Positions 39,287-49,014 of a stretch of 64,000 nt of DNA are shown here, in pieces. Under the pieces are notes generated by a model. The model had not been told where the DNA came from and made no database searches. It worked only from the letters and a program-made list of their open reading frames with translations. Made by a program: the position numbers and the translations under genes. Numbering within the stretch: the stretch's first letter is position 1; the number at the start of each line of letters is the position of its first letter. This DNA is from Geitlerinema sp. PCC 9228 (GTDB lineage: Bacteria > Cyanobacteriota > Cyanobacteriia > Cyanobacteriales > PCC-9228). The stretch spans positions 62,001 through 126,000 of the forward strand of contig NZ_LNDC01000094.1 of NCBI RefSeq assembly GCF_001870905.1, read 5' to 3'.

Positions 39287-39650
39287 AAAAATTGTGTTTC
39301 GGTTTGCTTTCTCGAGGGCTAAAATTCCTGAATATGGCTGGCAAACAAGCAAATAATAGGAAAATTGGTTTTTGAGAAAAGAAGCAGAAAAACCGTTTAT
39401 CTACGGTCTTGCAAGCTATATTGGAGTAAAATCGATCGATTCCTTGGTCCAAAATCTCCCTGAATTTGATGGTCCCAAGGATTGGGTGCCACAAGCACCA
39501 TCGGTGTCTAACCTAGAAGGGAACCGCCAACCTCGCCGTACTTACCGTCAGCACCCCCGCCTGAAGCACGGGGCTTCATGCCTCCAGCTTCAGGTAGCTG
39601 ACCAGCCCTTCGCCCTTTGGGGCTAGGTTTTTAGAGTCATGGCACCGACA

Positions 39651-39814
39651 AATGCTTTCAGTGTTGGTCGCCCTGCCGTTAACGGTTAAACCGCCCTACA
39701 ATGGGGAAGGCAGTGCCGTTAGCTCGACCAGCCCGAAAAACATGGGCGAGGAAAATATGACCCTGTGCAGAGTAGGCGATTCCGGCTAGAACACTGAAAG
39801 AGCGGAAACTGCAC
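39651..39814 (+). ncRNA. HEARO / OMEGA-RNA-like structured RNA
   Basis: The region is closed by an 11-bp perfect helix, CTTTCAGTGTT (39655-39665) with AACACTGAAAG (39790-39800). Inside lie GGTCG/CGACC (39666-39670 with 39725-39729), CTGCC/GGCAG (39673-39677 with 39709-39713), a CGGT/ACCG hairpin and GCCC/GGGC (39731-39734 with 39744-39747). GTGCAG (39765-39770), inside the closing helix, pairs perfectly with CTGCAC (39809-39814) outside it, forming a pseudoknot. Chance is an unlikely source of this nested and crossing set. HEARO RNAs guide IscB or IsrB nucleases; the family call rests on remembered consensus features. Confidence 0.6.
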
Positions 39815-39823
39815 CTCTTTTCG

Positions 39824-39913
39824 CTCCCCCCCTGGTGGGGAAGGCGACTTTCGTCGCCGTTCGTTTTTCCTCCCTGCGCTAAAGCGACAGGACTTCCAAA
39901 CGTATCGAAGATT
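39824..39913 (+). repeat. Right-end repeat, copy 1
   Basis: About 90 bases shared with 48741-48831, roughly nine in ten positions identical by eye. Both copies keep a CCCC/GGGG hairpin, a GGCGAC/GTCGCC hairpin whose loop differs (TTTC versus TAAA), and a GCGCT/AGCGAC-type stem. Both end in TTCCAAACGTATCGA followed by a purine and GATTT. GTGA follows within three bases in each case. Confidence 0.85.
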
Positions 39914-39917
39914 TCCC

Positions 39918-48250: not shown

Positions 48251-48735
48251 ATTGACACTCCGCGCTCGTCGCAGATGCAGATTCTTCCTTCAACGATCCG
48301 TCTTGCGGCAACAGGCTTTCACCAGCTACCGTAGCGGACCAATCTCCGGAAGCGTTTCCTGCCTCACCGACAGAAGTTTCGGTGTGCCCCACCGTACTTA
48401 AAGCAAGTTCCAAAATATTAGGTGCCACATTTTCATCTCTATCCAACCAATATCCACAAGACGCAAAAATGGGTCCGTGTGGAAGGGAAGCAACGCGTTG
48501 CGCCCCTACTTGCGAACCATGGCACCGCAGCCGGAACAGTTTTGGGTGGTACCAGCGAGATGAACAGCAACAGTTATCCCCTGCTACTTGCTAGCAAACT
48601 GTTCTAGCCAGATGCGGAACTTGTCCCAAGCAGCATCGTCGATCGATTTTGCCCTTACAAGAGTTTTTCACGTCTGTTGCGAATCCTCAAATTTTCATAG
48701 GCGACCAAATCGTTAGATTGGATAACACTGTACCT
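48240..48735 (-). pseudogene. Decayed TnpB (IS200/IS605 family), C-terminal part
   Basis: Reading the minus strand from about 48735, fragments of a TnpB RuvC domain appear in order. They are VIQSNDLVAYENLRIRN (with the RuvC-II Glu), then LAKSIDDAAWDKFRIWLEQFA. TQNCSGCGAMVRK follows, the first half of the zinc finger. Last come LDRDENVAPNILELALSTVGH (RuvC-III Asp) and a C-terminal tail. Two in-frame stops and at least two frame changes interrupt it, and the second zinc-finger half is reduced to one CG. The N-terminal half and both IS ends are missing. Its 3' end overlaps the last codons of the HEAT-repeat gene. Confidence 0.85.
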
Positions 48736-48740
48736 GTTTT

Positions 48741-48831
48741 CCTCCCCCTTGGTGGGGAAGGCGACTAAAGTCGCCGTTCGTTGTTCCTCCCGGCGCTCAA
48801 GCGACAGGGCTTCCAAACGTATCGAGGATTT
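48741..48831 (+). repeat. Right-end repeat, copy 2
   Basis: Second copy of the element end described at 39824-39913, in the same orientation. It abuts the 5' side of the broken TnpB gene, which lies on the other strand, so it does not seem to be that gene's own end. GTGA begins two bases after the repeat. The structured RNA core present beside copy 1 is absent here. The rest of the gap, 48832-49014, shows only a GGCCG/CGGCC hairpin near 48871-48892. Confidence 0.8.
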
Positions 48832-49014
48832 AGGTGAAGCCGGATAAGCATGCCCGGAAAATGGGATAGAGGCCGTTGTCCTGCGGCCAGTTAGGGATAT
48901 CTAACAGGATACATGTCCACATTTTCCAAACTATTTTTATCTCGATCGCCTTTTAGAATCGGGAAAAAAGATGGAAAATAGATAGTCTGTAGCATTCCCG
49001 ATAAAAAGAGATTG

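What the first reader, a model, noticed from the sequence alone, without database searches (positions are those of the whole stretch)
39547..39915. Solo HEARO/OMEGA-RNA element without its nuclease gene
A closed structured RNA with an 11-bp outer helix, four or more inner helices and a crossing 6-bp pseudoknot sits between a hairpin and a right-end repeat, with no ORF inside. This is what an IscB/IsrB-type element looks like after losing its protein. Solo guide-RNA elements could be mobilised in trans, or could act as free regulatory RNAs. The helices are read directly; the family name is from memory of HEARO features.
Basis: partly seen in the sequence, partly recalled or inferred. Interest (0 to 1): 0.75.

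Follow-up and report, generated by a model that had tools for sequence, protein, structure and literature searches.

The report
Nuclease-free guide-RNA transposon at gene start
A 371-base cyanobacterial mobile element carries the guide RNA of an RNA-guided DNA cutter but not the cutter gene; it belongs to an old, widespread lineage with its own extra RNA knot, and many relatives sit exactly in front of the start codons of ordinary genes.

Summary
Window 39547-39761 matches Rfam HEARO (RF02033, 111.9 bits, E 3e-22), and the element runs 39547-39917. It has no ORF. It is followed by GTGA, which is host sequence: element-free relatives read GTGAGTTATTG at the same point, the GTG start codon of a kinase gene. 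The genome holds 43 HEARO matches; only six have a visible IscB start next to them, and one of those is an intact IscB element. That element shares both ends with this one (86% and 89%), so mobilisation and IscB supply in trans are plausible but untested. "Lost its protein" is only partly right. Where the IscB element has its ORF, this copy has a covarying pseudoknot domain (39764-39832) found in 36 of 342 genomes of the order. It often lies directly after HEARO and is absent from the 17 IscB-linked loci tested. Outside this genome such elements abut RTGA start codons far above chance (14/20 against 9.6%). In one genus a relic is fixed before a padR gene. Standalone omega RNAs are already known (PMC9581776); I found no report of the solo-specific domain or the start-codon habit, in a limited library.

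The parts
39531..39546 (+). Putative guide: 16 nt of host DNA (CCTCGCCGTACTTACC) directly 5' of the scaffold
   Evidence: Position by analogy with IscB/IsrB omega RNAs (PMC9640706, PMC9581776). Left flanks differ from copy to copy. Guide+GTGA occurs nowhere intact in the genome with up to 3 mismatches, except this flank running into the element. Inferred, not shown.
39547..39917 (+). Solo HEARO (OMEGA) element, 371 bp, no nuclease ORF
   Evidence: Both ends set by about 20 paralogous copies and by element-free relatives
39547..39761 (+). HEARO / omega-RNA scaffold; outer helix 39547-39552 with 39597-39602; pseudoknot 39605-39609 with 39743-39747
   Evidence: RF02033 111.9 bits; structure mapped; covariation
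39764..39832 (+). Solo-specific 3' pseudoknot domain: stem A 39765-39770 with 39809-39814; stem B 39800-39807 with 39819-39826, crossing stem A
   Evidence: Covariation; model R1 found in 36/342 genomes; not in IscB-linked loci; no Rfam match
39843..39868 (+). Right-end hairpin GGCGACTTTCGTCGCC followed by GTTCGTTTTT: terminator-like, or a subterminal hairpin for a transposase
   Evidence: pairs kept across copies (helix 13)
39869..39917 (+). Right-end segment shared with the IscB-bearing element; purine-rich GAAG 39907-39910, 7 nt before the GTG, could serve as Shine-Dalgarno
   Evidence: 89% over 73 nt to the IscB element's end; 31 copies of the end motif in the genome
39918..39921 (+). GTGA: target-site / TAM-like tetranucleotide; host sequence, start codon of the next gene
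   Evidence: Element-free relatives have GTGAGTTATTG at the same point; RTGA follows most right ends; IsrB TAM NTGA (PMC9581776)
39918..41993 (+). Downstream gene: Ser/Thr kinase-WD40 protein, 691 aa, GTG start touching the element
48727..48833 (+). Second, truncated right end of the same element family in the window (no HEARO)

Best explanation
It is a non-autonomous member of an IscB-type (HEARO/OMEGA) transposon family, belonging to a lineage that carries a guide-RNA scaffold plus its own 3' pseudoknot instead of a nuclease. Shown: anatomy, ends, host GTGA target, many copies, shared ends with an intact IscB element, covariation. Inferred: it is excised and inserted in trans by a transposase acting on the shared ends. 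Its transcript starts in host DNA to the left, so each copy reads its own flank as guide. IscB made elsewhere in the genome loads the RNA and cuts the resealed donor site (flank + GTGA), so that repair from a sister chromosome restores the copy. RTGA target choice lets copies land on ATGA/GTGA start codons, where the purine-rich right end can replace the Shine-Dalgarno sequence.
For: HEARO match. 43 HEARO matches, few IscB. Intact 430-aa IscB (NCBIfam guided_IscB 431 bits against cutoff 175) in an element sharing 86% of the scaffold and 89% of the right end. RTGA after most right ends; GTGA is host. Published: standalone omega RNAs can function with IscB, and IsrB uses an NTGA TAM (PMC9581776). 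Structure kept by compensatory change.
Against: No transposase gene (Y1_Tnp) lies next to these ends in the genome. No sigma-70 promoter-like site upstream, so transcription is unproven. IscB with this scaffold, TAM and guide use were not tested. The 3' domain has no known protein partner. No empty site from the same species was available.
Confidence: 0.62

Rival explanations
1. Exapted 5' leader: the element (or its pseudoknot domain) now works in cis as untranslated leader/regulator of the downstream gene, with the right end supplying the ribosome-binding site.
For: 14 of 20 domain loci taken from a list without regard to neighbours abut an RTGA that opens an ORF of 100 aa or more (null 9.6%, P about 1e-10). 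In G002 11 of 13 domain/solo copies do. Genes behind them include gyrB, amt, btpA, yceD, an NmrA-like gene and padR. A relic is fixed before padR across the 10 species read in one genus.
Against: In the window's own genome placement is at chance (7/30; null 15-21%), and GTGA-type ends in G170 mostly miss gene starts, so this copy may have landed there by chance. No expression data. Some listed loci are orthologous, which inflates the count.
Confidence: 0.25
2. Dead remnant: a decayed IscB transposon copy with no present activity.
For: Some copies are truncated or frayed; internal deletions C131 and C171 show how remnants arise.
Against: Complete ends, intact scaffold, many copies 84-93% identical, structure kept by compensatory change, and a domain conserved across genera.
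Confidence: 0.15
3. The solo RNAs serve IsrB (HNH-less nickase), not IscB; an IsrB-like gene lies about 100 nt downstream of one solo copy (C169).
For: The C169 protein matches solved IsrB over most of its length (E 1.5e-33) and has no HNH match; IsrB TAM NTGA fits (PMC9581776).
Against: The gene lies outside that element's right end. Four IsrB-like loci in G023 have a different upstream sequence without the domain. The element ends match the IscB element.
Confidence: 0.1

Closest known systems
HEARO RNA (Rfam RF02033) / IscB omega RNA
   Same: Full-length model match, outer helix, pseudoknot, position at the left end of an element, guide-side flank
   Different: No nuclease ORF; a 69-nt pseudoknot domain follows HEARO, where IscB-bearing relatives start the ORF within about 20-45 nt
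Standalone omega RNAs used in trans by IscB (reported in the reference cited by PMC9581776, which I take to be Altae-Tran 2021)
   Same: Omega-RNA scaffold without an adjacent nuclease gene, IscB elsewhere in the genome
   Different: Here the solo form is a lineage with its own covarying 3' domain, present across at least 17 genera; I could not read the original paper to compare
MITEs / non-autonomous IS200/IS605 elements
   Same: Short, ORF-less, shared ends with a longer gene-bearing element, multi-copy
   Different: Carries a whole guide-RNA scaffold; targets RTGA and, in other genomes, often start codons
IsrB omega RNA (D. thermocuniculi, PDB 8dmb)
   Same: Guide at 5' end, NTGA TAM
   Different: IsrB-like loci examined here lack the solo 3' domain

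Membership tests
HEARO RNA (RF02033) | Covariance-model score above the gathering cut-off | tested here: met
   111.9 bits against 83
HEARO RNA (RF02033) | Consensus helices supported by covariation among copies | tested here: met
   22 pairs with two-sided change; slid controls 9 or fewer
OMEGA (IscB) system | Nuclease gene next to the RNA | tested here: not met
   No IscB ORF in or next to 39547-39917; intact IscB on contig C98
OMEGA (IscB) system | Guide 5' of scaffold and TAM at the other element end | tested here: inconclusive
   Anatomy fits (unique left flanks, RTGA at right end); guiding not tested
Standalone omega RNA | Functions in trans with an IscB | not testable with these tools
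   Needs reconstitution; compatible ends and scaffold only
Non-autonomous IS200/IS605-type element (MITE) | Ends shared with a gene-bearing copy and multiple dispersed copies | tested here: met
   89% right end, 86% left part; 31 right ends. The IscB-bearing copy itself has no TnpA
Non-autonomous IS200/IS605-type element (MITE) | Mobilising TnpA identified | tested here: not met
   8 Y1_Tnp matches, none adjacent to these ends

The most novel reading that the evidence does not exclude
A lineage of guide-RNA transposons that gave up the nuclease, gained its own pseudoknot, and spreads by landing on start codons (RTGA doubles as TAM and ATG/GTG start) while supplying a ribosome-binding site, so insertions do little harm. 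In some genera single copies have been domesticated as 5' leader RNAs.
Probability: 0.35. Interest if true: 0.82.

Novelty: new variant of a known kind. Interest (0 to 1): 0.6.

Why it matters
IscB is the likely ancestor of Cas9. A solo lineage whose RNA is conserved without its nuclease makes it testable whether omega RNAs act in trans for non-autonomous transposons, much as tracr/crRNAs became separated from Cas9. The start-codon placement with an element-supplied ribosome-binding site would be a low-damage insertion strategy and a route by which a guide RNA becomes a gene's leader. The 3' domain is a compact, strongly covarying pseudoknot with no Rfam match.

Tried and rejected
Close relatives with an empty site: the genome's family has no other held member, so only order-level relatives of the kinase gene could be used. 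Antiporter scan of genome contigs: 80 relatives, not followed further for synteny. RNAalifold on the whole-element alignment missed most HEARO pairs because two subfamilies differ by indels; replaced by the Rfam structure. The idea that the 3' domain is part of IsrB omega RNA was tested on IsrB-like loci and rejected. The idea that G000 copies prefer gene starts: not supported. A first script for domain extraction returned nothing; redone. A first regex for the G002 right ends missed half of them; redone by mismatch count. Phage records: no match; plasmids: only partial HEARO matches in cyanobacteria. Key papers (Weinberg 2009, Altae-Tran 2021, Meers 2023) are not in the library, so novelty is judged from citing papers only. 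Paper searches that returned nothing for my combinations of terms.

Full report
What was checked. Rfam's HEARO model matches 39547-39761 (+) end to end with 111.9 bits (gathering 83, E 3e-22), and no other family reaches its gathering score in the window. The element is more than a chance fold: 371 nt at -145.5 kcal/mol, below all 100 shuffles (z -3.8).

Ends. The genome (4.80 Mb, 223 contigs) holds 43 HEARO matches at E 0.001 or better. Aligning about 20 full copies shows common ends: left |GTCAGC..., right ...TATCGAAGATTTTCC|. The window copy is 39547-39917. The next four bases, GTGA, are host: in element-free relatives the same kind of kinase gene reads GTGAGTTATTG (L079, L080, L081). So the element sits directly before the GTG start codon of a 691-aa kinase-WD40 gene. 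RTGA follows about 28 of 33 right ends in the genome, mostly GTGA, with single-base variants in most of the rest (my tally). This agrees with the published NTGA target motif of IsrB (PMC9581776).

Where the nuclease is. RRXRR (PF14239) finds ten matches in the genome. Six HEARO matches have a recognisable IscB start within about 40 nt (C89, C98, C104, C122, C91, C22; from the coordinates); the others are solo, truncated or undetermined at contig ends. One element, on C98, is whole: HEARO, a 430-aa IscB (guided_IscB 431 bits, cutoff 175; RRXRR and HNH; related to solved IscB chains), and the same right end. The window element matches it at 86% over 1-217 and at 89% over 296-368; the stretch between, 218-295, has no counterpart there. 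Several contigs break exactly at this right end, so more IscB copies are probably collapsed in the assembly.

A domain that is not in IscB elements. The stretch in place of the ORF contains a 69-nt domain (39764-39832): stem A GTGCAG/CTGCAC and stem B GAGCGGAA/TTTCGCTC, whose loop holds the 3' arm of stem A, so that the two cross. On 21 copies from three genomes the fixed structure pairs in 91% of cells (slid controls 55% or less; 29 cells with two-sided change). A model built with stem B only (R1) was run over 342 genomes of the order: 36 genomes in 17 genera match. On 28 loci fetched for the best hits of other genomes (one, G041, had been in the training set), all 8 pairs of stem B have two-sided changes, 95% paired, and stem A, which the model did not contain as pairs, is paired in 94%. 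On 30 loci, partly overlapping these, stem A pairs in 163 of 174 cells, with other sequence versions such as GTACAG/CTGTAC and GGAGTAG/CTACTCC. In 10 of 20 loci examined with Rfam the domain starts 2-3 nt after a HEARO match. R1 finds nothing in the 17 IscB-linked loci tested nor in ORF-less HEAROs of two other genomes, nor next to four IsrB-like genes of G023. Rfam has no match to it. So this element belongs to a nuclease-free lineage, not to a fresh loss; fresh losses also exist (C131 and C171 keep the IscB start).

Start codons. In G002, 11 of 13 copies that have the solo left end or the domain lie exactly at an ATGA that opens an ORF of 100 aa or more, with GGAG-type sequence of the element a few nucleotides upstream (my count from that table). 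The genes there include sufB-, sqdB- and NDH-2-like ones, judged by eye from their N-termini. Random RTGA sites in the window do so in 15-21%; binomial P about 2e-6. As a second test, 20 domain loci were taken from the list without regard to their neighbours: 14 of 20 have such an ORF at an RTGA 75-203 nt downstream, against 9.6% for random positions (P about 1e-10). At least one pair (L308, L311) is the same locus in two species, so the P value is somewhat too small. Elements with ATGA ends carry the effect; GTGA-type ends, including this genome's, do not (7/30 in G000). Downstream genes in other genomes include gyrB, an ammonium transporter, btpA, yceD, a zinc-protease gene, an NmrA-like gene and padR. 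In one genus (g2) all ten loci read have the domain with only the end of HEARO left, fixed before the same 130-aa PadR gene; Rfam no longer sees HEARO there. That looks like exaptation, but no expression data exist.

Mechanism. Best supported: a non-autonomous OMEGA element. Shown are anatomy, ends, copy number, host GTGA, shared ends with an intact IscB element and structural conservation. Inferred are trans mobilisation, use of the left flank (39531-39546) as guide, and cutting of the resealed donor site by IscB in trans. The guide plus GTGA exists nowhere intact in the genome, as expected if the only site is the occupied one. That standalone omega RNAs can function with IscB has been reported (PMC9581776 citing its reference 4). 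Weak points: no transposase with these ends, no promoter-like site found, no test of IscB with this RNA.

Novelty. The kind (standalone HEARO/omega RNA) is known. I found no report of the solo-specific pseudoknot or of the start-codon habit, in a library that lacks the key original papers. I therefore file it as a new variant of a known kind.

Noticed in passing
window 48727-48833: A second right end of the same element family, without HEARO, followed by GTGA (48834-48837).
   Followed up: partly
L050:704-1948 (-), genome contig C169: An IsrB-like protein (414 aa, no HNH, E 1.5e-33 to solved IsrB) starts about 100 nt downstream of a solo element with the 3' domain; chance or partner is open.
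   Followed up: partly
L172, L173, L174, L176, L178 (contigs C33, C71, C78, C111, C170): Contigs that break exactly at the IscB element's right end with different flanks: probably several near-identical IscB copies collapsed in the assembly.
   Followed up: no
L275, L277-L285: Relic of the solo element (HEARO end, pseudoknot, right-end part) fixed before the same padR gene in ten species of one genus.
   Followed up: partly
L261, L263, L264, L270, L273: In genus g38 a HEARO plus domain appears at what looks like one conserved locus, with a different tail and no gene start behind it.
   Followed up: no
L286-L289: IsrB-like genes of G023 share a similar upstream stretch that HEARO scores at 25 bits or less: perhaps an IsrB omega-RNA type that Rfam covers poorly.
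   Followed up: no
L217, L221, L225, L229; L210, L214, L218, L222: Other ORF-less HEAROs in G005 and G027 without the 3' domain; those of G027 seem to keep IscB-like remnants, which suggests independent losses of the nuclease.
   Followed up: partly
L177 (contig C137): An IscB-element 3' remnant whose right end abuts ATGA, the start codon of a truB-like gene.
   Followed up: no
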